Positions 5,248 to 15,592 of a stretch of DNA of 15,868 nt are shown in pieces. The DNA is taken from positions 1-15,868 of the forward strand of contig DAOVRJ010000024.1 in the NCBI GenBank assembly GCA_030628225.1, given 5' to 3'. Each line of letters begins with the position of its first letter. Position 1 is the first letter of the stretch. The notes under the pieces were generated by a model. That model did no database searches. It saw nothing but the letters and a program-made list of their open reading frames with translations, and was not told where the DNA came from. This DNA is from Candidatus Zixiibacteriota bacterium (lineage in GTDB: Bacteria > SM23-81). Both the position numbers and the translations under genes were made by a program.

Positions 5248-6651
5248 TTAAAGAGAACTGAGGTGCTCATGGATAGATCTGGCCGCCTTGCGCCCGGCCC
5301 CCATGGCCAGGATGACTGTTGCGGCACCGGTGACCACATCTCCCCCGGCCCAAACTCTCTCCCGGGAGGTCTTTCCGCTTTCCTCGTCGGCAACGATGTT
5401 GCCTCTCTTGCCCACCTCCAATCCTGGGGTGCTGGCCGCTATGAGCGGATTTGGGCTGTTTCCGATTGCGCATATGGCAGCATCCATGGGCAGGATAAAC
5501 TCAGAGCCCTCGATGGGCACCGGCCTTCTCCTTCCGGAAGAATCTGGCTCACCCAGCTCCATGCGCAGGCATTCGATCTCCTTGATCCATCCATTCTCGT
5601 TCCCGATATATCTGATGGGCAGGGTGAGAAAATCAAAGATCACCCCTTCCTCCTCGGCGTTCTCGACCTCCTCCTCCCTTGCCGGCAGTTCCTGCCTCGA
5701 TCTTCTGTAGATGATCCTGGCCTCTGCTCCCAACCTCAAGGCCGTTCTGGCGCAGTCCATGGCCACGTTCCCGCCGCCGACAACTGCCACGCGTTTGTGC
5801 TCCTTTATGGGAGTGGGAAACCGGGGGAAGAGATAGCCTTTCATCAGGTTCATTCGTGTCAGATACTCATTGGCCGAATAAACGCCATTCAGATTTTCTC
5901 CGGGAATGTCCATGAACCATGGCAATCCTGCGCCGGAGCCAATAAATATGGCGTCAAATTCCTGCAGAAGACTATCCACCGTTCTGGTCTTGCCCACCAC
6001 AAAGTCGGTGATTACCTCAACGCCCAGCTTTTTGAGATAGTCCACTTCTCTGCTCACGATGGCCTTGGGAAGCCGAAATTCCGGGATACCGTAGATCAGC
6101 ACCCCACCCATCTTGTGCAGCGCCTCGAAGATAATCACCTGGTGTCCCAATTTGATCAGGTCACCAGCCACAGTGAGCCCCGCCGGGCCTCCACCCACCA
6201 CGGCGACCTTCTTTCCCGTGGCAGCAGGGCTTTTCGGTATCTCCAACTCACCCTGTCTTGCTTCCCAGTCTGCCAGAAATCGCTCCAGCCGACCTATGGC
6301 AATCTGCCCTCCCTTTTTCAACAAAATGCAAGTTTCTTCACATTGCTCCTCCTGGGGACAGACACGTCCGCAGATCGCCGGAAGAAGGTTTTTCTCCTTC
6401 AACACACTGACGCCGGAGCTGAAGTCCCGCTCGGCAATACATCGAATGAACCCGGGAATATCAATCTCCACCGGACATCCCAATACACACTTTGGCTTTT
6501 TGCAGTTCAAACAACGCCTTGCCTCCTCCACGGCATGTTCAACGGAATACCCCAATGCTACCTCGCTGAAATTGTGCCGACGCACCTCTGCAGCCTGTTT
6601 GGGCATTTCCCTTCTATTTAAGTCCATCTTTTTCCGCTTCGGAACCGGCAT
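5248..6651 (-). CDS. nfnB: NfnB / glutamate-synthase-small-subunit-like FAD, NADPH and [4Fe-4S] flavoprotein
   Basis: 467 aa, the usual length for NfnB/SudA/GltD-family proteins. The N-terminal domain has two cysteine groups (C47, C50, C55, C59 and C94, C98, C104, C108) for two [4Fe-4S] clusters. A first Rossmann fold with VVGGGPAGL (151-159) binds FAD, and a second with VVGGGNVAMDCA (290-301) followed by YRRSRQELPAR is typical of NADPH binding. A C-terminal AGGDVVTGAATVILAMGAGRKA closes the FAD site. In NfnAB this subunit carries the bifurcating FAD, oxidising or reducing NADPH with electrons split to ferredoxin and to NfnA. No glutamate synthase large subunit is nearby; the neighbours are an NfnA-like gene 11 bases upstream and NuoEFG-like genes, so a transhydrogenase role fits better than glutamate synthesis. 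The start ATG has AGGGA eight bases upstream, embedded in the preceding stop codon region. Confidence 0.93.
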   Translation of the reverse strand: MPVPKRKKMDLNRREMPKQAAEVRRHNFSEVALGYSVEHAVEEARRCLNCKKPKCVLGCPVEIDIPGFIRCIAERDFSSGVSVLKEKNLLPAICGRVCPQEEQCEETCILLKKGGQIAIGRLERFLADWEARQGELEIPKSPAATGKKVAVVGGGPAGLTVAGDLIKLGHQVIIFEALHKMGGVLIYGIPEFRLPKAIVSREVDYLKKLGVEVITDFVVGKTRTVDSLLQEFDAIFIGSGAGLPWFMDIPGENLNGVYSANEYLTRMNLMKGYLFPRFPTPIKEHKRVAVVGGGNVAMDCARTALRLGAEARIIYRRSRQELPAREEEVENAEEEGVIFDFLTLPIRYIGNENGWIKEIECLRMELGEPDSSGRRRPVPIEGSEFILPMDAAICAIGNSPNPLIAASTPGLEVGKRGNIVADEESGKTSRERVWAGGDVVTGAATVILAMGAGRKAARSIHEHLSSL

Positions 6652-6662
6652 ATCGCTTTTCC

Positions 6663-7505
6663 CTACCGCTTGACCACGTGTTCTTCACACCTGCTTGTTC
6701 TCATAGATGTAACTTCTTCTGGCATGTAGGTCCTTCGCCGCTGCAAAAGTTCAGCCCAATCCACCTGGTGTCCATCAAAATCCGGTCCATCCACACAGGC
6801 AAATTTTGTGGAGCCTCCCACAGTGACGCGACACACTCCACACATCCCTGTGCCGTCAATCATGATTGGATTCAAGCTAACGACCGTTTTTATGCCCAGA
6901 GGCCGGCTGGCATCTGATCCTTTCTTCAAAAGGAAGGTACATCCATTGATGATCATCCGGTCTACGGGCTCATCCAATGATTTTATAATCTCGGGAAGCC
7001 TGTCCACGTGTCCCCGGTAGCCCTTTGTTCCATCCCGGGTGATGCTTACGATCCTGTCGGATACCTGCTCAAGTTTCTCCTCCCAGTAACAGAGATATGA
7101 GCTTCTGGCCTCTATTACAGTGATCACCTTGTTTTCTTTCTCCTTGAGCCCTCGAGCAATGGGGAAAATGCTCCCGATACCATAGCATCCGCCAAGACAC
7201 AGGACAGTTCCGAATTTTTCGATTTCCGTGGCATTGCCCAGAGGACCCACCACCGTGGGAAGGTTTTGGCCACCTCTCAGCGAGGCCAGTTTTCCAGTAG
7301 TATTGCCCACGTTCATGAAAATAATGGTCAGCGTCCCCTTTTCCCTGTCCCAGTCAGACACAGAGAGGGGTATTCTCTCCCCCTCCTCCTCGGCTCGCAC
7401 AATCACGAACTGACCCGGTCTTATCTCGCTGGCGATGGCCGGAGCTTCCAGTGTAACAAGGTGTATATTGGGAACGATCATCTGGGTTTCTAATAATTTA
7501 AACAT
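6663..7505 (-). CDS. nfnA: NfnA-like FAD/[2Fe-2S] NAD(P)-binding subunit (ferredoxin-NADP reductase / PyrK superfamily)
   Basis: 280 aa, full length for NfnA/SudB. The FAD-binding barrel carries RIPLSVSD (44-51). A nucleotide-binding domain starts at LGGCYGIGSIFPIA (104-117). The C-terminal cluster motif is DGTGMCGVC with Asp217, Cys222, Cys225 and later Cys237; Asp217 occupies the position of the first cysteine in PyrK relatives, matching the unusual Asp-plus-three-Cys [2Fe-2S] ligation known for NfnA. It binds NAD(H) in classical NfnAB. Its ATG overlaps the stop of the NuoG-like gene by 8 bases (ATGTTTAA), indicating translational coupling. In this operon an NfnA unit sits beside a NuoF-type NAD(H) site, so which pyridine nucleotide it uses is open; it may be mainly an electron relay between NfnB and the NuoG-like subunit. 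Confidence 0.92.
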   Translation of the reverse strand: MFKLLETQMIVPNIHLVTLEAPAIASEIRPGQFVIVRAEEEGERIPLSVSDWDREKGTLTIIFMNVGNTTGKLASLRGGQNLPTVVGPLGNATEIEKFGTVLCLGGCYGIGSIFPIARGLKEKENKVITVIEARSSYLCYWEEKLEQVSDRIVSITRDGTKGYRGHVDRLPEIIKSLDEPVDRMIINGCTFLLKKGSDASRPLGIKTVVSLNPIMIDGTGMCGVCRVTVGGSTKFACVDGPDFDGHQVDWAELLQRRRTYMPEEVTSMRTSRCEEHVVKR

Positions 7506-10029
7506 CTTTTTTTCTCATTATCACCGGATGCGGGTTCGGCTCAATGAATTCGCCATTGCGGAGCGTGGCATACAACATTCCCCTCTGCTGACCGCTGACA
7601 ATTCTGGCCAACAGGCTTTTCTGGAAGTGTTCCCAGGAGACAACTACTTCATCCCCTGTGGATATGCCGAGCTTTTTGGCATCCTCCGGACTTACGTCGA
7701 CTGTTTCCTCGGCAAACAACATCCTTGCTCCCTCCACCCAGTCGGTGAGCGGAAAACCACGATAAATGTGCTCAACGGTGGACACATTCATCATGAACGG
7801 CGGCTTCTTGTCAGCCCTCTTCTTCCCCGCTGATTTTCGCCGCACAACCCTCAGCTCTCCCTCGATCAGCAGGGGACTTGCTTTGCGTCTGGGTTTAGCG
7901 AAATTCCCAAATCCCGCCACAAAGCGAGAGATCTCTTTATGGATCTGGCGGACGTTGCCGAAATCAAACCCTTTTTTGCCCAGTTTTCGGGCGATCCGGC
8001 ATAGTATCTCCCAATCGGGCAATGCTTCCCCGGGAGGATGCACTGCTTTTCTCACCCGCTGAATTCTCCCCTCCCCGTTTATGGACGTTCCATCCGTCTC
8101 CGTAAAAGCGGCCGCAGGAAGAACAAGATCAGCCTGGCCAGGTGAACCGGAAGGATAGATGTTCTGGAAAATGGTGAAGTCAGAATGGGGCTCGCGGTTT
8201 GGGGGCACAACTCCTATGAGGTACAACACTTTCAGCTTTCTTCCCCATAAAAGCGCCTCTGCGCTCCGTCTAGAGGGGAAAGTAGGTATATCCGCACTCC
8301 ATCTCTCGCTTAAATCGTCAGCTCTCCCTTTGTCCGTAGAGGAAAAACCGCCGGGCAGAAGTTCGGGGTAAGCCCCCATGAGAACAGAACCATACAAATT
8401 GCTCTGAGCTGGCAGTGGTAGAACCCCAGCACAAGTATTTCGCGCTAATTTCCCGATGGCCTCGAGGATCTGCGGACTTTCTCTGCGCTGTAGAAATTCC
8501 GACCCCACAAGGATCACAGGCGAACAGGCCTCCCCCAGCATCTCGGCCACCTGGGAAAGCTCATCGGCAAGATCGCCTCTTTTTCTCCTGGATGCGGACA
8601 TCATTGTCCGCCTGCCCTTCTTCTCCGTCAACTTCACAAGAGAACGCAGAAGATGAACCATCTCGTCAGGAGCTGGCTGAAGCCATTTTTCGGCGATCAT
8701 GGTCAGATTATTATTCCTGGGGTTTATGGTAATGACTTTTGCACCTCTCCCAATAGCCTTGCGAAGCTGCACACCTACCACCGATCTTCCGAATCTCGTA
8801 TCCAGCCCGACGCAAAGGATGAGGGAAGCCTTGCTCAAGTCCGCAAGAGGAACACTCATCCTCATCAGATTCAGGTAAGCGTTGAACCCAGGCCCATAGA
8901 ATTTTCTTGCAGTGGTATCGATGTTCACAGAACCCATCACTACGCGGGCAAATTTTTGGGCCACATACAAATCCTCGTTCGTGCAGTTGGGCGAAACAAG
9001 CAAGCCGAATCGCTCCGCGGGGCAGTCGGATAGCTTTTTCGCGGCCAGTTCGATGGCTTGTTCCCACGAGATCTGTAGCTCAGCTCCGTTTTGAGTTCTG
9101 TACGGTTTCCTTAAACGCCGGTGGTTGTTGACCAATTCTGTCACACAGAACCTTCCCTTCACGCAAAGTTGCCCATCATTCACCAACGGATCTTCTGCCG
9201 GCAGGCTGCCGATAACCTTCTCTCCCTTTATCAAAAGTCGCACCTGACACCCCACCCCACACAGGGAGCAGGTCGTAACCTCTTCCCTTTCCGCTTTCCC
9301 CTCCCATTTCCGGGCTTTTTCGGAAAGAGCACCGGTCGGGCAAACGGAAACACACGCTCCACAGAACTCACAGCCAGCTTGCCAGTGAGTTCTGTTATAC
9401 GCGGGACCAATAACCGTTTGGCGCCCTCTCTGCTTGAAGGCCAAGACATCGGCCATTCGTATCTCCTGGCACATGCGAATACATCTTCCACATAAGATAC
9501 AAAGGTTGTAATCCCGGTCGTAGAAAGGATCCTCTTTTTCAACCCGCAACTGTCTATAGTATATAGGATAATCGATCTCTTTCAGCCCCAGATATTCCAC
9601 AACGTCCTGCAGCTCACATTGTCCATCATTTGGACAATACCGACATCCTGTGATCACGCCCGCCTTACGGATGGTGCCCATATATTCCCGGCACTCATCC
9701 TTTTGGCCACAGATTAAACAACTGGAGGTGTGCTCGCTTAAAATCAGCTGCAATATTTCCCTTCTCTCATTTTGAACCTGGGCGGTGTGAGTTCTGATGA
9801 CCATCCCCTCCTCCACCGGGGTTGTGCAGGCTGTGGGAAAACCGCGCATCCCCTCCACCTCCACGATGCACATGCGACACCCTCCAAAAGGAGTTAGTGC
9901 CTCGTGGGCACAGAGGGTGGGGATGTATATGCCATTGCATTCGGCAGCCTGTAAGATGGTCAGCTTCCGCTTCACCTGGAGGACCTTGTTGTCCATGGTG
10001 ATCTTGACGGTCTTACTGCGTTTGCTCAT
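7498..10029 (-). CDS. NuoG / formate-dehydrogenase-alpha-like iron-sulfur subunit with a degenerate molybdopterin active site
   Basis: 843 aa. The N-terminus carries a [2Fe-2S] domain (C40, C51, C54, C68) and a NuoG-type His-Cys3 site (H100, C104, C107, C113). A further C129-x2-C132-x5-C138 set and a two-[4Fe-4S] ferredoxin unit (C177, C180, C183, C187; C220, C223, C226, C230) follow. Next comes a molybdopterin-oxidoreductase body with its own [4Fe-4S] site (C254, C257, C261, C289) and LCVKGRF. Where formate dehydrogenases have Cys/Sec-His (as in CARLCHSP), this protein reads ARKFYGP (F377-Y378) with no in-frame TGA, so formate oxidation is unlikely. The pterin half keeps the NuoG-like FTETDGTSINGEGRIQ motif and a C-terminal molydop-binding domain. 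I chose ATG 10029, which has a GGGAAG site six bases upstream and overlaps the NuoF-like gene by 17 bases; a longer frame from 10224 only adds sequence opposite that gene. It is predicted to wire the NuoEF and NfnAB modules together. Confidence 0.92.
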   Translation of the reverse strand: MSKRSKTVKITMDNKVLQVKRKLTILQAAECNGIYIPTLCAHEALTPFGGCRMCIVEVEGMRGFPTACTTPVEEGMVIRTHTAQVQNERREILQLILSEHTSSCLICGQKDECREYMGTIRKAGVITGCRYCPNDGQCELQDVVEYLGLKEIDYPIYYRQLRVEKEDPFYDRDYNLCILCGRCIRMCQEIRMADVLAFKQRGRQTVIGPAYNRTHWQAGCEFCGACVSVCPTGALSEKARKWEGKAEREEVTTCSLCGVGCQVRLLIKGEKVIGSLPAEDPLVNDGQLCVKGRFCVTELVNNHRRLRKPYRTQNGAELQISWEQAIELAAKKLSDCPAERFGLLVSPNCTNEDLYVAQKFARVVMGSVNIDTTARKFYGPGFNAYLNLMRMSVPLADLSKASLILCVGLDTRFGRSVVGVQLRKAIGRGAKVITINPRNNNLTMIAEKWLQPAPDEMVHLLRSLVKLTEKKGRRTMMSASRRKRGDLADELSQVAEMLGEACSPVILVGSEFLQRRESPQILEAIGKLARNTCAGVLPLPAQSNLYGSVLMGAYPELLPGGFSSTDKGRADDLSERWSADIPTFPSRRSAEALLWGRKLKVLYLIGVVPPNREPHSDFTIFQNIYPSGSPGQADLVLPAAAFTETDGTSINGEGRIQRVRKAVHPPGEALPDWEILCRIARKLGKKGFDFGNVRQIHKEISRFVAGFGNFAKPRRKASPLLIEGELRVVRRKSAGKKRADKKPPFMMNVSTVEHIYRGFPLTDWVEGARMLFAEETVDVSPEDAKKLGISTGDEVVVSWEHFQKSLLARIVSGQQRGMLYATLRNGEFIEPNPHPVIMRKKDV

Positions 10030-11917
10030 CGGCAACTTCCCGCCGGGATCTGATAACGATAGCGTCTCCGGCAATGGCGTCGAAACGACAGATTTCGTAA
10101 CAGGCTCTGCATTTGATACACTTGGTCGGATCCAGGTTGTGCGGTTCCGCCCGGGGACCGGTGATGGCGCCCGTGGGACACACGCTGACACAACGCTGAC
10201 ACCCGGTACACTTTCCGGGAACAACCCGGTATTCGACGAGCTCCCGACATACCGCTGCCGGGCAGTATTTCTCCTTGATATGCAGGAGATATTCCGGGCG
10301 GAAATAGCGCAGGGTCGTCAAAACCGGATTTGGAGCAGTCTGTCCCAACCCGCAAAGAGAGCCTCTTTTTATGGTTTCACCTAAAGTCTGAAGCTTAGAT
10401 AGATCTTCCGGCCGTCCCTGTCCTTTTGTGATCCTCTCCAGAATCTCCACCAGATGCCGCGTTCCCACACGACAGGGAGAGCACTTGCCACAGGACTCCT
10501 GTTGCGTAAAATCCAGGAAATAGTGGGCCACATCCACCACACAGGTGTCCTCATCCATCACGATGAGGCCACCGGAGCCCATAATTGACCCAGCCGCCGT
10601 CAGAGACTCGTAATTCACCGGCGTGTCCAAGAACTCCTCGGAAAGACATCCCCCTGAAGGTCCACCCGTTTGGACCGCTTTGAAAGGCTTCCTGGTACCT
10701 CCTCCTATGTCGAAGATGATCTGCCTTAGCGTCATTCCCAGGGGCACCTCGATGAGCCCGGAGCGGCGTATTTTCCCGACCAGGGAGAAAGTCTTTGTGC
10801 CGTGATTCCCCTGGGTACCAAACTGCTTGTACCAGGTGGCCCCGTTGCGCAAAATGTTCGGAAGAGTACCCAAGGTCTCCACGTTGTTGATGATTGTAGG
10901 CTTGCCATGAAGACCGGCGACGGCAGGAAAGGGAGGCCTGGACTTGGGCATGCCCCTTTTGCCCTCTATGGAGCTGATCAGCGCTGTTTCCTCTCCGCAG
11001 ACGAAGGCCCCTGCCCCCTCTTTAATGACTATGTCGAAATCAAATCCTGATTTCTGGATGTTCTTGCCCAACAACCCATATTCACGCATCTGAGAGATGG
11101 CTCTCTTTAAACGGGCAATGGCCAATGGATATTCCGCCCTTATGTAGATGTATCCTTGACTGGCACCAATGGCATAGGCAGCAATCAGCATCCCCTCCAG
11201 AACCGAGTGCGGATCGCCCTCCAACAAAGATCGGTTCATGAAGGCACCCGGGTCCCCCTCGTCGGCATTGCAGATCAGGTACTTGGTCTTTCCGGGAGAG
11301 CTTCTGCATATCTGCCATTTCTTGAAGGTGGGAAATCCGGCGCCGCCCCTGCCGCGCAACCCCGCTTCCTGGACCTCGCAGATGACCTTTTGCCAACCTT
11401 TATGGAAGGCGTTAATGATGCCCAGATAGCCATCGTTGGCCAGATAGTGGTCAATCTGCTGGGGATCTATGAACCCGCAGTTTCTGAGCACCACCCTCTC
11501 TTGCGGTTTCAACATGGGAAGATCGAAGAAACGAGGAATTCCGTTCGTGAATTCGTCGCTCTCATCTCCGAAGTGCCCCACGGCAAGCTTGGTCTGCGGA
11601 TCGTTCTTGATCAGTAAGGATTCAATTATCTTTTTGGCCTTCTCTGAGTTGACATTAGCATAGCTTATTCGAGGGCGCCCCGGCATAGTGATGTCCATAA
11701 GCGGTTCCAGATAACAGGGTCCAATACACCCCACCTGGACGATCTTAGCCTTCAGTCGCTTTTCCCGGAGGATCTTCTTGACCGACTCCAGCACTTCCAG
11801 GGCGCCAGCGGCCCTGCCGCAGGTAGCGGTACCCATATAGATGATGGGGATCTTGCTGTTTTTCAACAAGTCCCACTTCCGCCGAGCTTCTTGTTTTGCT
11901 TTTTGGAGACTATTCAT
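10013..11917 (-). CDS. NuoF/HydB-like NADH-binding FMN subunit with N-terminal [2Fe-2S] and C-terminal 2x[4Fe-4S] domains
   Basis: 634 aa, the extended HydB-type layout rather than the ~430-residue complex I NuoF. An N-terminal thioredoxin-like domain has C33, C64 and C68. The FMN/NADH core has GLRGRGGAGFPTFKKWQ (186-202), ICNADEGDPGAFMNRS (215-230) and GAGAFVCGEETALI (301-314), followed by an SLBB region. The N3-type [4Fe-4S] cluster is C476, C479, C482 with C522. The C-terminal ferredoxin unit carries two clusters (C570, C573, C576, C580; C600, C603, C606, C610). In electron-bifurcating hydrogenases this subunit binds NAD(H) and is proposed to host the bifurcating FMN. Its ATG overlaps the NuoE-like stop by 8 bases. 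Here it replaces the usual [FeFe]-hydrogenase partner with a NuoG-like gene. Family identity is firm; the partner set makes it part of a transhydrogenase-like complex by inference. Confidence 0.94.
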   Translation of the reverse strand: MNSLQKAKQEARRKWDLLKNSKIPIIYMGTATCGRAAGALEVLESVKKILREKRLKAKIVQVGCIGPCYLEPLMDITMPGRPRISYANVNSEKAKKIIESLLIKNDPQTKLAVGHFGDESDEFTNGIPRFFDLPMLKPQERVVLRNCGFIDPQQIDHYLANDGYLGIINAFHKGWQKVICEVQEAGLRGRGGAGFPTFKKWQICRSSPGKTKYLICNADEGDPGAFMNRSLLEGDPHSVLEGMLIAAYAIGASQGYIYIRAEYPLAIARLKRAISQMREYGLLGKNIQKSGFDFDIVIKEGAGAFVCGEETALISSIEGKRGMPKSRPPFPAVAGLHGKPTIINNVETLGTLPNILRNGATWYKQFGTQGNHGTKTFSLVGKIRRSGLIEVPLGMTLRQIIFDIGGGTRKPFKAVQTGGPSGGCLSEEFLDTPVNYESLTAAGSIMGSGGLIVMDEDTCVVDVAHYFLDFTQQESCGKCSPCRVGTRHLVEILERITKGQGRPEDLSKLQTLGETIKRGSLCGLGQTAPNPVLTTLRYFRPEYLLHIKEKYCPAAVCRELVEYRVVPGKCTGCQRCVSVCPTGAITGPRAEPHNLDPTKCIKCRACYEICRFDAIAGDAIVIRSRREVADEQTQ

Positions 11918-12362
11918 ATTTTTCCAAGACTTCTTTCAGACGAATAACGGTCATTCGACTGTAGATATCATCGTTGATCTGGATCACCGGGGCCAGCGCA
12001 CAGCACCCCAGGCAGGCCACTCGCTGGAGATCGAACCTCTTATCTTCGGTTGTTTGCCCCGCTGAAATAGCGAGCTCCCTCTCCAGGACATCGCCAAGGA
12101 TCTGCCCTCCGCGCACATGGCAAGCGGTTCCCATACAGACCTTAATGGAGTTTCTGCCCGGCTCCGTGAATCGAAACTGGGAATAAAAAGAGGCTACCCC
12201 AAAGATCTGATTTTCCGAGATCTTCAAAAACTGGGAAATAGCCTCTATAGCGCCCTTCGTGATATACCCGGCCTTTTCTTGAACCCTCTGCAGAATGGGA
12301 ATTAAATCCCCTTGCTCACCTGCAAATCCAGAAAATATGTCGCCCCATTCTCTATCTATCAC
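11910..12362 (-). CDS. NuoE/HydC-like thioredoxin-fold [2Fe-2S] subunit
   Basis: 150 aa, normal for NuoE/HydC. The cluster motif is CMGTACHVRG followed by CLGCCALAP, giving the C-x4-C and C-x3-C pairs (C76, C81, C117, C121 from the GTG start) of the complex I 24-kDa subunit. The helical N-terminal part includes LIPILQRVQEKAGYI. It docks on the NuoF-like subunit and carries the [2Fe-2S] cluster near FMN. Two starts are possible. ATG 12377 has no Shine-Dalgarno at proper distance, whereas GTG 12362 has GGGAG eight bases upstream; I prefer the GTG. It overlaps the following NuoF-like gene by 8 bases (ATGAATAG) and follows the hydrogenase-like gene closely, so it is co-transcribed with the regulatory genes upstream. 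Confidence 0.92.
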   Translation of the reverse strand: MIDREWGDIFSGFAGEQGDLIPILQRVQEKAGYITKGAIEAISQFLKISENQIFGVASFYSQFRFTEPGRNSIKVCMGTACHVRGGQILGDVLERELAISAGQTTEDKRFDLQRVACLGCCALAPVIQINDDIYSRMTVIRLKEVLEKYE

Positions 12363-12404
12363 AGAACATGCTCCCATTCAGCTTTAAAAATAATCGCCCT
12401 TCTG

Positions 12405-13673
12405 TTATTTCTCCTCTGCCTTTCCTGCCAGAAAGACGCAATCAGTTAGCTTTACCTCTCCTCTGACAAAGTCCTCAGCAAAAGCCAGGCAGGTCGGCGA
12501 GCCGCAGCAGCCGCAGTCTGTCTGGCGGAGCTTCTGATAGACTCTCTCTTTCTCCTTCATCCTCTTGATGGAGGTCTCCAGATCTGTGTCGAAGAATGTT
12601 GTCGGACGAGGCAAAACCGGATTTTCCAGAACATAATACCCTTTTTTCAGCTTTCTGTCCACATCCTCATCGTTAATTTCAATGTGCTTTTGATATTTTT
12701 CCCGTTGCTTAATACTGTTGGCTCGAGCCACATAGGGGTTTTCCACGTTAAAAGACCCGCCCAGGCAACCCAGCATACAGGACATGGCCTCCACAAAATC
12801 GATATTGCGCAGTCGCGAGTTCTCCACATCGTCGAGTATTTTCATCACGTGATCCAACCCCGAGACGGCCAGCCAATTCTCCATCTCTGCCGACTTGGCT
12901 AGACCTCCCAGGTTGGTCCAACCTGTATCGAAGAAAAAATCCTCAGGCACCTGTTTTTCGTCAAATGTTTCCTTTATGGCCACGACATGTGGCAACAATA
13001 CAGGGTAAATGTCCTTTATGGCCATGGCGGCATCAAACCAGGACCTGGCTTTTTCGGCCGGTTGCTTGATGGAGACGATCTTGGCCGGGCAGGTGGCTGT
13101 GTATATGATGCCGATGTCCTCCGCCTTCAGCTTTAATTTTGCTGGAAAGCTCCTTCTTATCTCCCGGGCGGTAACCTCCCGGGGCGCATCCAGCGGCAGA
13201 AGTAGTTCCACCAGATCGGGATATTTCACCTGGATCAAGCGGAGTATAGATGGACAATGAGAAGATATGAGCGGAAGCCGACCTCGATATTCCTCCATGA
13301 ATTTTACCAGCACCCTGGACAGACCCGCCGAGGAGATACCAACATCAACGACCTCGTCGAAACCGAGCTCTTTTAGAGCCAGATGAATGATGTAAGGATG
13401 AATGCTGGCATCGAATTGTGAATACAGCACCGGGGATGGCACAATCACCTTATATTTGAAATGGGAGATCTCCCCAATGGGATCAGAAATGGGAATGATG
13501 GCCCCTTCGGGGCAAACGGATATGCAGGTTCCACAATCGATACAGAGCTCTTGGGAGAAAACCGCCTGGCCCCCTCGAACGCGGATGGCCTGTGTGGGAC
13601 AGTGGCGCATGCAAGTCATGTGTCCGCGACACCTGTCCAAATCCACTCTGTGAGCATGATAATATTGCACCAA
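12405..13673 (-). CDS. [FeFe]-hydrogenase-like iron-sulfur protein, probable redox sensor (HydS-like), with C-terminal RnfB/CODH-type FeS domain
   Basis: 422 aa. Two N-terminal [4Fe-4S] motifs come first. The first is degenerate (C15, His18 where Cys is usual, C21, C25); the second is complete (C44, C47, C50, C54). The central part is homologous to the H-cluster domain: SSHCP (C140) for the usual TSCCP, TATCPAK (C195, K198) for MPCxxKK, and EAMSCMLGC (C299, C303) for ExMACxxGC. All four cluster-ligand cysteines remain, but the proton-relay Cys before C140 is His139 and the flanking motifs are eroded. C387, C390, C395 and C412 form a PF04060-type FeS domain. Catalytic H2 turnover looks unlikely; related short hydrogenase-like proteins accompany bifurcating hydrogenase operons and are thought to sense redox state. 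A TTG (13673) or GTG (13670) start is used; the GTG is better spaced (8 bases) from the GGAG site. It sits between the ATPase and NuoE-like genes. Confidence 0.88.
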   Translation of the reverse strand: MVQYYHAHRVDLDRCRGHMTCMRHCPTQAIRVRGGQAVFSQELCIDCGTCISVCPEGAIIPISDPIGEISHFKYKVIVPSPVLYSQFDASIHPYIIHLALKELGFDEVVDVGISSAGLSRVLVKFMEEYRGRLPLISSHCPSILRLIQVKYPDLVELLLPLDAPREVTAREIRRSFPAKLKLKAEDIGIIYTATCPAKIVSIKQPAEKARSWFDAAMAIKDIYPVLLPHVVAIKETFDEKQVPEDFFFDTGWTNLGGLAKSAEMENWLAVSGLDHVMKILDDVENSRLRNIDFVEAMSCMLGCLGGSFNVENPYVARANSIKQREKYQKHIEINDEDVDRKLKKGYYVLENPVLPRPTTFFDTDLETSIKRMKEKERVYQKLRQTDCGCCGSPTCLAFAEDFVRGEVKLTDCVFLAGKAEEK

Positions 13674-13705
13674 TTTATCTCCGTTCCCCCATAAAAAATA
13701 ATCCT

Positions 13706-14503
13706 TTAGATAAAATACTTCATTTTCAGCGTGGTGCCCTTTCCAACCTTGCTTTCGATCTCCAGCTCATCTGAGTTCTTCTTTATGTTAGGCAGCCCCA
13801 TTCCGGAGCCGAATCCCATTGCTCTCATCTCCTCGGTGGCGGTCGTATAGCCGCGCTGCATGGCTAAGTCCACATCGGGGATACCCTTACCATCATCATC
13901 GATCACCACCTCGATGACCTCTGGAGTCACCGTTAGAAAGACTTTGGCCCTCTCAGCATGCATGACCACGTTCATCTCGCCCTCGTAAGTCGAGATGGCC
14001 ACGCGGCGAACTAGCTTGGGATCAAATCCTATTTTTTTCAGAACAGACTTAATCTCTGTGGAGGCCATCCCGGCATTGGCAAAATCGTTCCCCTCGACGT
14101 AGAATTCATGACTCAGCAGAATTTTCTGCGCCTCTTCTTCAGCGGGTCCGGTTTTCCGCCGCAGGGCTCCTCCTCTTTCCATGGCGTCTATCCTGATGCA
14201 AGCATCGTACATATCCAGCTCCGTGGAAAGCAGGATAAGGCTCTGCTCTCTGGCGAACTTTTCCGCACCATCCTTGGGTATTTTGCCCCGAACAAACACA
14301 ACCCCCTCGAACTCCGCCATGTGAGCGGAGATGATGGCCTGCCGGGTGGCCAGCCCGGTTAGCAAAATCGAATTGGGTTTTCCGAAGGCCAAGACATCGC
14401 TCATCAGGTCAGATGCATACACGTGTTCAACCACGGCATCTAGTTTGTCTTCCCCCTCGATGACTGTGGCCTGCAAGGCATCTTTGATCACTTTTATCTG
14501 CAC
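13706..14503 (-). CDS. DRTGG domain fused to an RsbW/RsbT-like histidine-kinase-type ATPase
   Basis: 265 aa. Residues about 1-105 form a DRTGG-like domain (SDLMSDVLAF, then FEGVVFVRGKIP). Residues about 130-265 form a GHKL ATPase of the anti-sigma/Ser-kinase type, with N-box STYEGEMNVVMHA (Glu174, Asn178), G1 DDDGKGIPD and G2 MGFGSGMGLPNI. There is no H-box, so it would act by binding or phosphorylating a partner protein rather than by autophosphorylation. I chose GTG 14503 because the domain begins there (MQIKVIKDAL) and a GGAG lies upstream. The frame stays open to ATG 14644, but that adds a Trp-rich stretch overlapping the DRTGG gene. No sigma factor or STAS anti-anti-sigma gene is in the window. 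Such DRTGG and ATPase genes recur next to hydrogenase-like operons of anaerobes, pointing to regulation of the downstream complex. Confidence 0.85.
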   Translation of the reverse strand: MQIKVIKDALQATVIEGEDKLDAVVEHVYASDLMSDVLAFGKPNSILLTGLATRQAIISAHMAEFEGVVFVRGKIPKDGAEKFAREQSLILLSTELDMYDACIRIDAMERGGALRRKTGPAEEEAQKILLSHEFYVEGNDFANAGMASTEIKSVLKKIGFDPKLVRRVAISTYEGEMNVVMHAERAKVFLTVTPEVIEVVIDDDGKGIPDVDLAMQRGYTTATEEMRAMGFGSGMGLPNIKKNSDELEIESKVGKGTTLKMKYFI

Positions 14504-14597
14504 AGCGGTTGTTTTTCTCCATAATTCGGTATCGATCGTAAAGTGACCTGATCTGCGCGGACCGAAGTTTAGCGTTTCTAGCAATTCTCCCGGCTGG

Positions 14598-14933
14598 CTA
14601 CGCGGCCCCCAAACCCAACCCATAAAGCTTTCCCACCAGCTCAAAAGTTGGCAACTCTATTGAGAGAATAGCGATGTTGAACTTGCTGGCCAGATCGATC
14701 GTCTCCTGCGGAACCTGTTTGCCGCTGGTGATAATAACCGCCGAGACATCCACAAGATTAGCCGCCGGGACGATGCTTTTGTGAGTCTGGACCGTCAACC
14801 ACAGGTCCCCTGATTTGGCACCGGCCATCACATCGCTGACCATGTCCGAGACGAAAACACCATGCACCTCTCGGTCCTCAAACTCGCTGAGAGATCTCAA
14901 ACCTATTTTTTCAACCAATTCATTGATGGTCAT
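14598..14933 (-). CDS. Stand-alone DRTGG-domain protein
   Basis: 111 aa, made of a single DRTGG-type domain (the fold also found N-terminal to HPr kinase and in phosphotransacetylases). The recognisable parts are VHGVFVSDMVSDVMAG (24-39), LTVQTHKSIVPAA, VSAVIITSGKQVP and IAILSIELPTFELVGKLY. It aligns along its length with the N-terminal domain of the next gene (SDMVSDVM versus SDLMSDVL; IAILSIELPTFE versus LILLSTELDMYD), so the two are tandem paralogues. DRTGG domains are presumed ligand or regulatory domains; the ligand is unknown. A strong GGAGG site lies upstream of ATG 14933. The gene is 44 bases after the zinc-ribbon-like gene and on the same strand as the whole operon. Confidence 0.85.
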   Translation of the reverse strand: MTINELVEKIGLRSLSEFEDREVHGVFVSDMVSDVMAGAKSGDLWLTVQTHKSIVPAANLVDVSAVIITSGKQVPQETIDLASKFNIAILSIELPTFELVGKLYGLGLGAA

Positions 14934-14977: not shown

Positions 14978-15529
14978 TTAAAACAGGGGCTTTCTCTCCG
15001 TAACCGCTTCTTGGGAAAGCATTCCCACGTCATGAATAAAATCACCCTTACAGCGAGAGAGGTCTTCGATCAAATGAAATGGCACAATCTTAATCTTCGA
15101 GCGAGAGGTATCCCTCCTCTGATTGAAATAATCAGTGAGAATATCCAGCCTATACGCCGGAATTGGCTCTGTCAGTGCCTTGGGGAGGAAACCAAATGCC
15201 ACCAGAAGGAAAGTTCGCTCTGCCTCATATTTCCTTTGCAAGCGTTCCACTTCACAATCGGCCAAACATCCGCTGCAGTGCAATAAACCCATCAGGTCTC
15301 TGAATTTTTCCACATGATCGCACTCTGTGCAGCGCAGGTCAAATCTGAAGGATTGGGCGTTTTCCATCCGGCTCCAGTAATGGTCTCCCTCACGATATCT
15401 ATCCCCCAGAATAGGAGTGTCCTCTAAAGAGAAATATGTTCTTAGCCCATTACAGTGAAAGCACTTCTCGAAGACAACAAAACCAAACTGTATGTTCGTC
15501 ATCTCCCACTGGTGCTGACATTCAGACAT
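14978..15529 (-). CDS. Hypothetical Cys-rich (zinc-ribbon-like) protein, first gene of the operon
   Basis: 183 aa of unrecognised function. The N-terminal half holds C4-x-H6, C23-x2-C26, C67-x2-C70, C85-x2-C88 and C92, a pattern suggesting one or two zinc ribbons (or a small iron-sulfur site). The fragments QFGFVVFEKCFHCNGLR and FRFDLRCTECDHVEKFRDL look like paired treble-clef/ribbon knuckles. The C-terminal ~90 residues are charged and without motifs; there is no signal peptide or membrane segment. ATG 15529 is chosen because AGGGAG precedes it by about nine bases; an in-frame TTG start at 15592 would fall inside the predicted promoter's -10 region. It leads the regulatory and redox genes and may be a DNA-, RNA- or protein-binding accessory factor, but nothing in the sequence proves this. 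Confidence 0.8.
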   Translation of the reverse strand: MSECQHQWEMTNIQFGFVVFEKCFHCNGLRTYFSLEDTPILGDRYREGDHYWSRMENAQSFRFDLRCTECDHVEKFRDLMGLLHCSGCLADCEVERLQRKYEAERTFLLVAFGFLPKALTEPIPAYRLDILTDYFNQRRDTSRSKIKIVPFHLIEDLSRCKGDFIHDVGMLSQEAVTERKPLF

Positions 15530-15592
15530 TTTAATCTGCTCCCTTTTGAAATGACCTTCTGCGAATGTCGGACCTTGAACTGGACCTGGCAA

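What the first reader, a model, noticed from the sequence alone, without database searches (positions are those of the whole stretch)
5248..12377. Five-gene NuoEFG + NfnAB operon: a likely split Sporomusa-type (Stn) electron-bifurcating transhydrogenase
Seen: NuoE-, NuoF/HydB-, NuoG-, NfnA- and NfnB-like genes in one tightly overlapping run, with no hydrogenase catalytic subunit and no complex I membrane genes. Known: NfnAB bifurcates between NADPH, NAD(H) and ferredoxin; HydABC couples a NuoEF module to [FeFe]-hydrogenase; the Sporomusa Stn complex combines NuoEF-like and NuoG/Nfn-like parts, with some of them fused. Inferred: these genes make one soluble complex with an NADH/FMN end, an NADPH/FAD end and a ferredoxin outlet. 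A separate-polypeptide version carrying a full-length NuoG/FDH-like subunit would be a distinct architecture.
Basis: partly seen in the sequence, partly recalled or inferred. Interest (0 to 1): 0.85.

Follow-up and report, generated by a model that had tools for sequence, protein, structure and literature searches.

The report
Two electron-splitting enzymes wired together
Five neighbouring genes very probably make a single enzyme that joins two known electron-splitting machines (the NADPH enzyme Nfn and the NADH/ferredoxin core of bifurcating hydrogenases); it recurs in several bacterial phyla, and its NfnA part has lost the residues of its normal NAD-binding pocket.

Summary
In detail: NuoE-NuoF-NuoG-NfnA-NfnB lie at 12377-5248 on the minus strand, overlapping or 11 bp apart. 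Synteny, fusions and co-evolution support one complex. In 386 genomes sampled across Bacteria, 15 carry a NuoG with a 27-residue, three-Cys insertion, and the same 15 carry a remodelled NfnA next to it. A 16th insertion-like NuoG (G354) lies beside an ordinary NfnA. In a 132-genome phylum, every exception is a contig end, except one locus with an interrupted NuoG. NuoG and NfnA are fused in two genomes. In a third the order is NfnB-NuoE-NuoF-NuoG-NfnA.

"Split Stn" is wrong as a family label. Stn has no NfnA, its GltD domain lost the bifurcating features that this NfnB keeps, and grouping StnC with this NuoG is rejected (p-AU 0.0015).

New here: every operon NfnA except that of G354 has lost the conserved NAD(H)-pocket residues (GGG to GGC, GAR to EAR, usually TDD to TRD, GP to GC). 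No standalone NfnA fetched shares the Cys pair. Nearly all other cofactor motifs are intact.

Best reading: NADPH is oxidised at NfnB, NfnA acts as a relay, NuoG carries electrons, and NAD(H) and ferredoxin react at NuoEF. Complex: about 0.85. Electron route: inferred. Verdict: new variant of a known kind; interest 0.62.

The parts
5248..6651 (-). NfnB-like (GltD/NfnL) NADPH- and FAD-binding subunit with two [4Fe-4S] sites; 467 aa
   Evidence: PF14691 + PF07992; T. maritima NfnB 4ylf_B 594 bits; Cys ligands, the CPQE Glu ligand and GIPEFRLPK kept
6663..7505 (-). NfnA-like (FNR-type flavin + [2Fe-2S]) subunit of the remodelled subfamily; 280 aa
   Evidence: PF10418, NF004862; best fold 5jca_S NfnI; 2Fe-2S ligands D217/C222/C225/C237 kept; subfamily split 100/99 without the signature columns
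7185..7187 (-). NfnA Cys107, replacing the third Gly of the NAD(H) loop GGGxG
   Evidence: C in 31 of 32 operon NfnA, G in 22 of 22 standalone
7110..7112 (-). NfnA Glu132, replacing Gly of GAR
   Evidence: E 31/32 against G 22/22
7035..7037 (-). NfnA Arg157, replacing Asp of TDDG
   Evidence: R 23/32; D or N 22/22 standalone
6939..6941 (-). NfnA Cys189, replacing Pro of GPxxMM
   Evidence: C 31/32 against P 22/22
7498..10029 (-). NuoG/FdsA-like connector: [2Fe-2S], several [4Fe-4S] sites, degenerate molybdopterin domain; 843 aa
   Evidence: PF13510, PF10588 (2 stretches), PF04879, PF00384; all FeS ligands invariant in a 20-sequence alignment
9616..9732 (-). NuoG double Cys motif H100-x3-C-x2-C-x5-C + 27-residue insertion adding C129-x2-C-x5-C138-EL
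   Evidence: invariant in the family, absent from NuoG/FDH homologues without adjacent NfnA
8899..8901 (-). NuoG Phe377 at the position of the catalytic Sec/Cys of formate dehydrogenase (next residue Tyr instead of His)
   Evidence: alignment with HDCR FdhF 7qv7_S and relatives
10013..11917 (-). NuoF/HydB/StnB-like (BfuB) subunit: FMN/NAD(H), N-terminal thioredoxin-like domain, C-terminal 2x[4Fe-4S]; 634 aa
   Evidence: 740, 733 and 704 bits to the three solved Nfn-Bfu/Stn B subunits 9n5u, 9bov, 8oh5, with cluster motifs conserved
11910..12377 (-). NuoE/HydC/StnA-like (BfuC) [2Fe-2S] thioredoxin-like subunit; 155 aa
   Evidence: PF01257; 9n5u_C and 7t2r_C best
12405..13673 (-). associated upstream gene: ferredoxin + divergent [FeFe]-hydrogenase-like domain + FeS domain; probably the same transcript, role unknown
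   Evidence: PF02906 84 bits, PF04060; co-conserved in relatives; only PF02906 match in the genome
13706..14644 (-). associated upstream gene: DRTGG + HATPase (anti-sigma/kinase-like)
   Evidence: PF13581, PF07085; co-conserved
14598..14933 (-). associated upstream gene: DRTGG-domain protein
   Evidence: PF07085; co-conserved

Best explanation
The five genes encode one soluble, five-subunit NADPH : NAD(H) : ferredoxin oxidoreductase. NADPH reacts at the FAD of NfnB. NfnA, whose conserved NAD(H)-pocket residues have been replaced, no longer serves as the NAD+ site; its [2Fe-2S] cluster and flavin act as a relay to (or from) NuoG. NuoG, with an extra inserted Cys motif, wires NfnAB to NuoEF. NuoEF is a complete HydBC/BfuBC core where NAD(H) reacts at FMN and ferredoxin at the C-terminal clusters. 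In the cell it most likely runs as NADH + 2 reduced ferredoxin -> 2 NADPH or the reverse, as Nfn and Stn do. Shown by sequence: gene content, conservation, fusions, intact cofactor motifs, the altered pocket. Inferred: physical assembly, electron route, direction and substrates.
For: Synteny in Zixibacteria, Calditrichota, KSB1 and Thermodesulfobacteriota. In 386 genomes the insertion-type NuoG and the remodelled NfnA occur in the same 15 genomes and adjacent, with a clear score gap (428 bits and above against 384 and below); 192 of the 386 have some NfnA. In a 132-genome phylum, 21 of 22 genomes with both have them about 2.5 kb apart on one contig, the 22nd is split over two contigs, and the genomes with only one are explained by contig ends or an interrupted NuoG. 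NuoG-NfnA fusions in G260 and G210. G387 has NfnB-NuoE-NuoF-NuoG-NfnA. Pairwise identities track as two modules, NuoE-NuoF 0.905 and NuoG-NfnB 0.956 / NuoG-NfnA 0.909 / NfnA-NfnB 0.898; G058 has distant NuoEF (56%) but close NuoG-NfnAB (81-84%). Cofactor motifs intact. NfnA subfamily 100/99 without signature columns. Altered residues sit at the C-terminal ends of successive strands of the NAD domain in a pLDDT 88.9 model.
Against: No physical or biochemical data; no multi-chain model could be run. Co-evolution figures share phylogeny and are not independent tests. NfnAB and BfuBC each can do this reaction alone, so combining them looks redundant. The low-potential (ferredoxin) ligands of both modules are kept, which a simple relay does not need. 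Electrons from the normal high-potential NfnA branch would be too weak to be split again at NuoEF. In G354 an insertion-like NuoG sits next to an ordinary NfnA.
Confidence: 0.6

Rival explanations
1. Same complex, but NfnA uses a new high-potential partner: Cys107, Cys189 and Glu132 in the old NAD(H) pocket form a redox-active disulfide, a metal site or the binding site of an unknown acceptor (as in P. furiosus Xfn/NfnII, which does not use NADH), while the low-potential NfnB branch feeds NuoG and NuoEF.
For: Two new near-invariant Cys and one Glu at strand ends in the nucleotide domain; Xfn precedent with a changed loop GAYTGI (5vj7_B; PMC6405883).
Against: Distance between the two Cys not measured; no extra gene for a new substrate is conserved in all loci.
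Confidence: 0.22
2. Two independent enzymes sharing an operon: a BfuABC enzyme with an unknown third substrate and an ordinary NfnAB.
For: Each half is complete by cofactor motifs.
Against: NuoG-NfnA fusions; NuoG insertion and NfnA remodelling co-occur; NfnA has lost its NAD(H)-pocket residues; the own genome also has a separate ordinary NfnAB (L120); NuoG lacks a catalytic Cys/Sec.
Confidence: 0.1
3. A split version of the Stn/Nfn-Bfu transhydrogenase (family member by descent).
For: Same module set (NuoE, NuoF, NuoG-like, GltD-like); the NuoG insertion lies where GltD is inserted in StnC; best BfuB hits are Stn/Nfn-Bfu.
Against: Stn has no NfnA (PMC10482914); NfnB is canonical; StnC as sister of this NuoG rejected, p-AU 0.0015 and 0.007.
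Confidence: 0.06
4. A bifurcating formate dehydrogenase (FdsA-like NuoG) with NfnAB attached.
For: NuoG's best solved relatives are formate dehydrogenases.
Against: Catalytic Sec/Cys-His replaced by Phe-Tyr and not conserved among relatives; the pterin domain is eroded or shortened in Syntrophorhabdia-type and fused loci.
Confidence: 0.02

Closest known systems
Stn / Nfn-Bfu transhydrogenase (StnABC, PDB 8OH5; T. sibiricus Nfn-Bfu 9N5U)
   Same: HydBC-like core, NuoG-like FeS connector with inactive FdhF-like domain, GltD-like NADPH flavoprotein; probably the same net reaction
   Different: Stn fuses GltD into NuoG and has no NfnA; its GltD lost bifurcation; its NuoG part is not sister to this one
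NfnAB (PDB 4YLF, 5JCA)
   Same: NfnB nearly unchanged; NfnA fold, flavin motif and [2Fe-2S] ligands
   Different: NfnA's NAD(H) pocket residues replaced; tied to NuoEFG
P. furiosus Xfn (NfnII, PDB 5VJ7)
   Same: an Nfn whose NfnA nucleotide loop is altered and which does not use NADH
   Different: stand-alone; different loop (GAYTGI), no Cys pair; no NuoEFG
Bfu family, Type 2/3 enzymes (HydABC relatives; PMC9304861)
   Same: complete BfuBC core with an added input module feeding BfuA
   Different: no NfnAB-fed member is named in the text of that survey
Hydrogenedentota sub-type I BfuABC (PMC11406978)
   Same: two possible bifurcating flavin centres in one enzyme
   Different: a hydrogenase whose BfuB carries the extra FAD domain; no NfnA/NfnB subunits

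Membership tests
Stn / Nfn-Bfu (Type 1) | BfuBC (StnAB) core with FMN, B1-B4 and A1 clusters | tested here: met
Stn / Nfn-Bfu (Type 1) | GltD domain fused within the NuoG-like subunit | tested here: not met
   NfnB is a separate gene
Stn / Nfn-Bfu (Type 1) | No NfnA homologue | tested here: not met
   NfnA 7505-6663 present and conserved
Stn / Nfn-Bfu (Type 1) | NuoG part shares descent with StnC | tested here: not met
   p-AU 0.0015 and 0.007 against; StnC represented by aligned pieces of 9bov_A
NfnAB | NfnB two [4Fe-4S] sites with Glu ligand, FAD and NADPH motifs | tested here: met
NfnAB | NfnA [2Fe-2S] with Asp + 3 Cys and FNR-type FAD motif | tested here: met
NfnAB | NfnA NAD(H)-binding motifs | tested here: not met
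   C107, E132, R157, C189
NfnAB | NAD+-dependent NADPH:ferredoxin activity | not testable with these tools
   needs purified enzyme
Bfu family | Conserved BfuBC core incl. N-terminal and C-terminal BfuB clusters | tested here: met
Bfu family | Bifurcation at FMN-FeS | not testable with these tools
   needs enzyme kinetics/spectroscopy
Bifurcating formate dehydrogenase | Catalytic Sec/Cys + His in the pterin domain | tested here: not met
   Phe377-Tyr378
HydABC [FeFe]-hydrogenase | H-cluster catalytic subunit fused to the NuoG-like FeS domain | tested here: not met
   no H-cluster domain in NuoG; PF02906 only in the divergent upstream protein

The most novel reading that the evidence does not exclude
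One complex holding two different bifurcation sites in series (the b-FAD of NfnB and the FMN-FeS centre of NuoF), linked through an NfnA whose NAD(H) pocket has become a new Cys/Cys/Glu redox or binding site, so that NADPH electrons are split twice or a new acceptor is used.
Probability: 0.22. Interest if true: 0.85.

Novelty: new variant of a known kind. Interest (0 to 1): 0.62.

Why it matters
Nfn and the HydBC/Bfu core are two unrelated solutions to electron bifurcation. A conserved enzyme that joins them makes it testable whether a bifurcating flavin can feed another bifurcating centre, and what NfnA does when its NAD(H) site is gone, a question left open by P. furiosus Xfn. It also gives a sequence signature (NuoG double Cys motif, NfnA GGCYG/EAR/GC) that separates this complex from ordinary Nfn, which automatic annotation of these uncultured lineages would otherwise read as complex I plus Nfn.

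Tried and rejected
Split Stn by descent: rejected by tree, missing NfnA and intact NfnB. Active formate dehydrogenase: rejected. HydABC missing its hydrogenase: no HydA in the assembly. Two separate enzymes: disfavoured by fusions and co-occurrence. NfnA+NfnB concatenated FastTree gave the operon type in two groups, but a careful NfnA tree without signature columns puts it on one side of a branch, 100/99. A first NuoG tree used a too loose motif label and was redone. The NuoG AlphaFold model is poor in the FeS domain (pLDDT under 50 at residues 99-137 and 158-235), so the insertion could not be placed in 3D. Model coordinates are not exposed, so the Cys107-Cys189 distance was not measured. Paper searches for a prior description found none, but only open-licence papers are held and supplements were not readable, so the 57-clade tables of PMC9304861 may include this gene set.
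Full report
Observation. On the minus strand of the window, NuoE (12377-11910), NuoF (11917-10013), NuoG (10029-7498), NfnA (7505-6663) and NfnB (6651-5248) overlap or are separated by 11 bp. Pfam and NCBIfam identify each part. The run goes on upstream with a divergent [FeFe]-hydrogenase-like FeS protein and two DRTGG/HATPase proteins, which are co-conserved in Zixibacteria, Calditrichota and KSB1 relatives but not in the Syntrophorhabdia-type loci. The assembly (2.3 Mb, 306 contigs, 92% complete) has no other PF02906 protein, a separate ordinary NfnAB on contig 240 and a further NuoF-like protein fused to GltD on contig 220.

Parts. NuoF matches StnB, T. sibiricus BfuB and NiFe-BfuB over its full length, including the N-terminal thioredoxin-like motif, the NuoF cluster and two C-terminal [4Fe-4S] sites, the features that separate bifurcating BfuB from complex I NuoF (PMC9304861). 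NuoG is closest to NAD-dependent formate dehydrogenase alpha subunits and NuoG, but Phe-Tyr stands where formate dehydrogenase has Sec/Cys-His, and relatives vary or shorten this domain. NfnB is canonical: 594 bits to T. maritima NfnB against 291 to StnC, with the Cys ligands, the CPQE glutamate and the FRLPK arginine kept. NfnA keeps its [2Fe-2S] and FAD motifs.

Two diagnostic changes. First, NuoG has a 27-residue insertion after H-x3-C-x2-C-x5-C that adds a second C-x2-C-x5-C-EL motif. All its Cys, the His and Lys122 are invariant in a 20-sequence alignment reaching down to 32% identity, and NuoG/FDH homologues not followed by NfnA lack it. In StnC the whole GltD domain sits at the same point (aligned pieces 3-122 and 568-672 of 9bov_A). 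Second, NfnA has replaced its NAD(H)-pocket residues: Gly107 to Cys, Gly132 to Glu, Asp157 mostly to Arg, Pro189 to Cys, Gln64 to mostly Met. Cys107, Glu132 and Cys189 are each present in 31 of 32 operon NfnA and 0 of 22 standalone; a wider check found the Cys pair in 22 of 23 loci next to NuoG (repeat fetches of some genomes included) and 0 of 32 without it. NfnB shows hardly any such change. In a good AlphaFold model (pLDDT 88.9) these residues lie at the C-terminal ends of successive strands of the nucleotide domain; closest folds are NfnI, T. maritima NfnA and Xfn.

Co-occurrence. A NuoG profile over 386 genomes sampled across the domain found 16 insertion-type NuoG, each with NfnA next to it or fused to it. 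A profile of the remodelled NfnA over the same genomes gave 15 hits at 428-495 bits and then a gap to 384. The 15 are the same genomes; the 16th NuoG (G354) has an ordinary NfnA and a truncated GltD fused to NuoG. In a further phylum of 132 genomes, 25 have the NuoG and 24 the NfnA. Of the 22 with both, 21 have them about 2.5 kb apart on one contig and G452 has them on two contigs. The three NuoG-only genomes stop at contig edges or have a partial NuoG, and the two NfnA-only genomes carry a NuoG cut by the contig start (G437) or interrupted (G489). Relatedness makes these counts non-independent, but I found no clean counter-example.

Physical coupling. In G260 and G210 NuoG and NfnA are one polypeptide, and in G210 NuoE and NuoF are also fused. 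In G387 the order is NfnB-NuoE-NuoF-NuoG-NfnA, all five kept although NfnA and NfnB are apart. Pairwise identities fall into two modules, NuoE-NuoF (r 0.905) and NuoG-NfnA-NfnB (0.909, 0.956, 0.898), with lower cross values (0.73-0.84). In G058 NuoEF is distant (56%) while NuoG-NfnAB is close (81-84%): NuoG goes with NfnAB at least as much as with NuoEF.

Descent. A careful NfnA tree without the signature columns puts the operon type on one side of a 100/99 branch from standalone NfnA. The operon NuoG forms a group (91/80) with NuoG-GltD fusions as nearest relatives (98/94); holding StnC with it is rejected (p-AU 0.0015; 0.007 with the GltD fusions included). StnC was represented only by the aligned pieces of 9bov_A. 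The resemblance to Stn is therefore most likely convergent assembly of the same modules.

Mechanism. What is shown is a conserved gene set with intact cofactor sites at both ends and a changed middle. I infer one complex (about 0.85). In Stn the FAD of GltD passes electrons through FeS clusters and NuoG to FMN, where NAD+ and ferredoxin are reduced (PMC10482914). Here NfnB can donate in the same way, but NfnA is present and has lost its NAD(H)-pocket residues, so I think NAD(H) reacts at NuoF and NfnA is a relay to NuoG. The alternative is an Xfn-like NfnA with a new partner at the Cys pair (PMC6405883). The two modules are thermodynamically redundant if both bifurcate: splitting the normal high-potential branch again cannot reduce ferredoxin (my estimate from the potentials in PMC9304861). 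This is the open point that experiments must settle.

Novelty. Type 1 Nfn-Bfu and Stn are known (PMC9304861, PMC7483475), and a two-centre enzyme has been postulated for Hydrogenedentota hydrogenases (PMC11406978). I found no description of NuoEFG joined to NfnAB or of the remodelled NfnA, within an open-access library without supplements. I file it as a new variant of the Bfu kind fed by a modified Nfn.

Noticed in passing
own genome contig 220 (L121:5710-8397, minus strand): NuoF/BfuB fused to a GltD flavodomain (897 aa ORF, cut by the contig end) followed by a 227-aa NuoG-like protein: a different NADPH-linked Bfu design, resembling the extra-FAD BfuB described for Hydrogenedentota (PMC11406978).
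   Followed up: partly
L109 (G260): NuoE, a NuoF-GltD fusion (1051 aa), a NuoG-NfnA fusion and NfnB side by side, so this locus codes for two GltD-type flavoproteins.
   Followed up: partly
window 12405-14933: Divergent [FeFe]-hydrogenase-like protein plus HATPase and DRTGG genes, co-conserved upstream of the operon; Cys remain at all three H-cluster motif positions (SSHCPS, TATCPAK, SCMLGC). Possibly a redox or H2 sensor system.
   Followed up: partly
L106 and L107 (G316, G182): NfnB has CPQS instead of CPQE, losing the Glu ligand of the proximal cluster thought to matter for bifurcation.
   Followed up: no
L113 (G354): Insertion-like NuoG fused to a truncated GltD (536 aa), followed by an ordinary NfnA and NfnB: a possible intermediate or independent assembly.
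   Followed up: partly
L114, L116, L118 (G034, G201, G061): NuoG N-terminal FeS domain fused directly to GltD without a neighbouring NuoEF; nearest relatives of the operon NuoG.
   Followed up: partly
own genome contig 240 (L120): A second, ordinary NfnAB (46% and 66% identical) in the same genome.
   Followed up: yes
window 14978-15592: 204-aa protein with no Pfam or NCBIfam match, conserved at the start of the upstream run in Zixibacteria-type loci.
   Followed up: no
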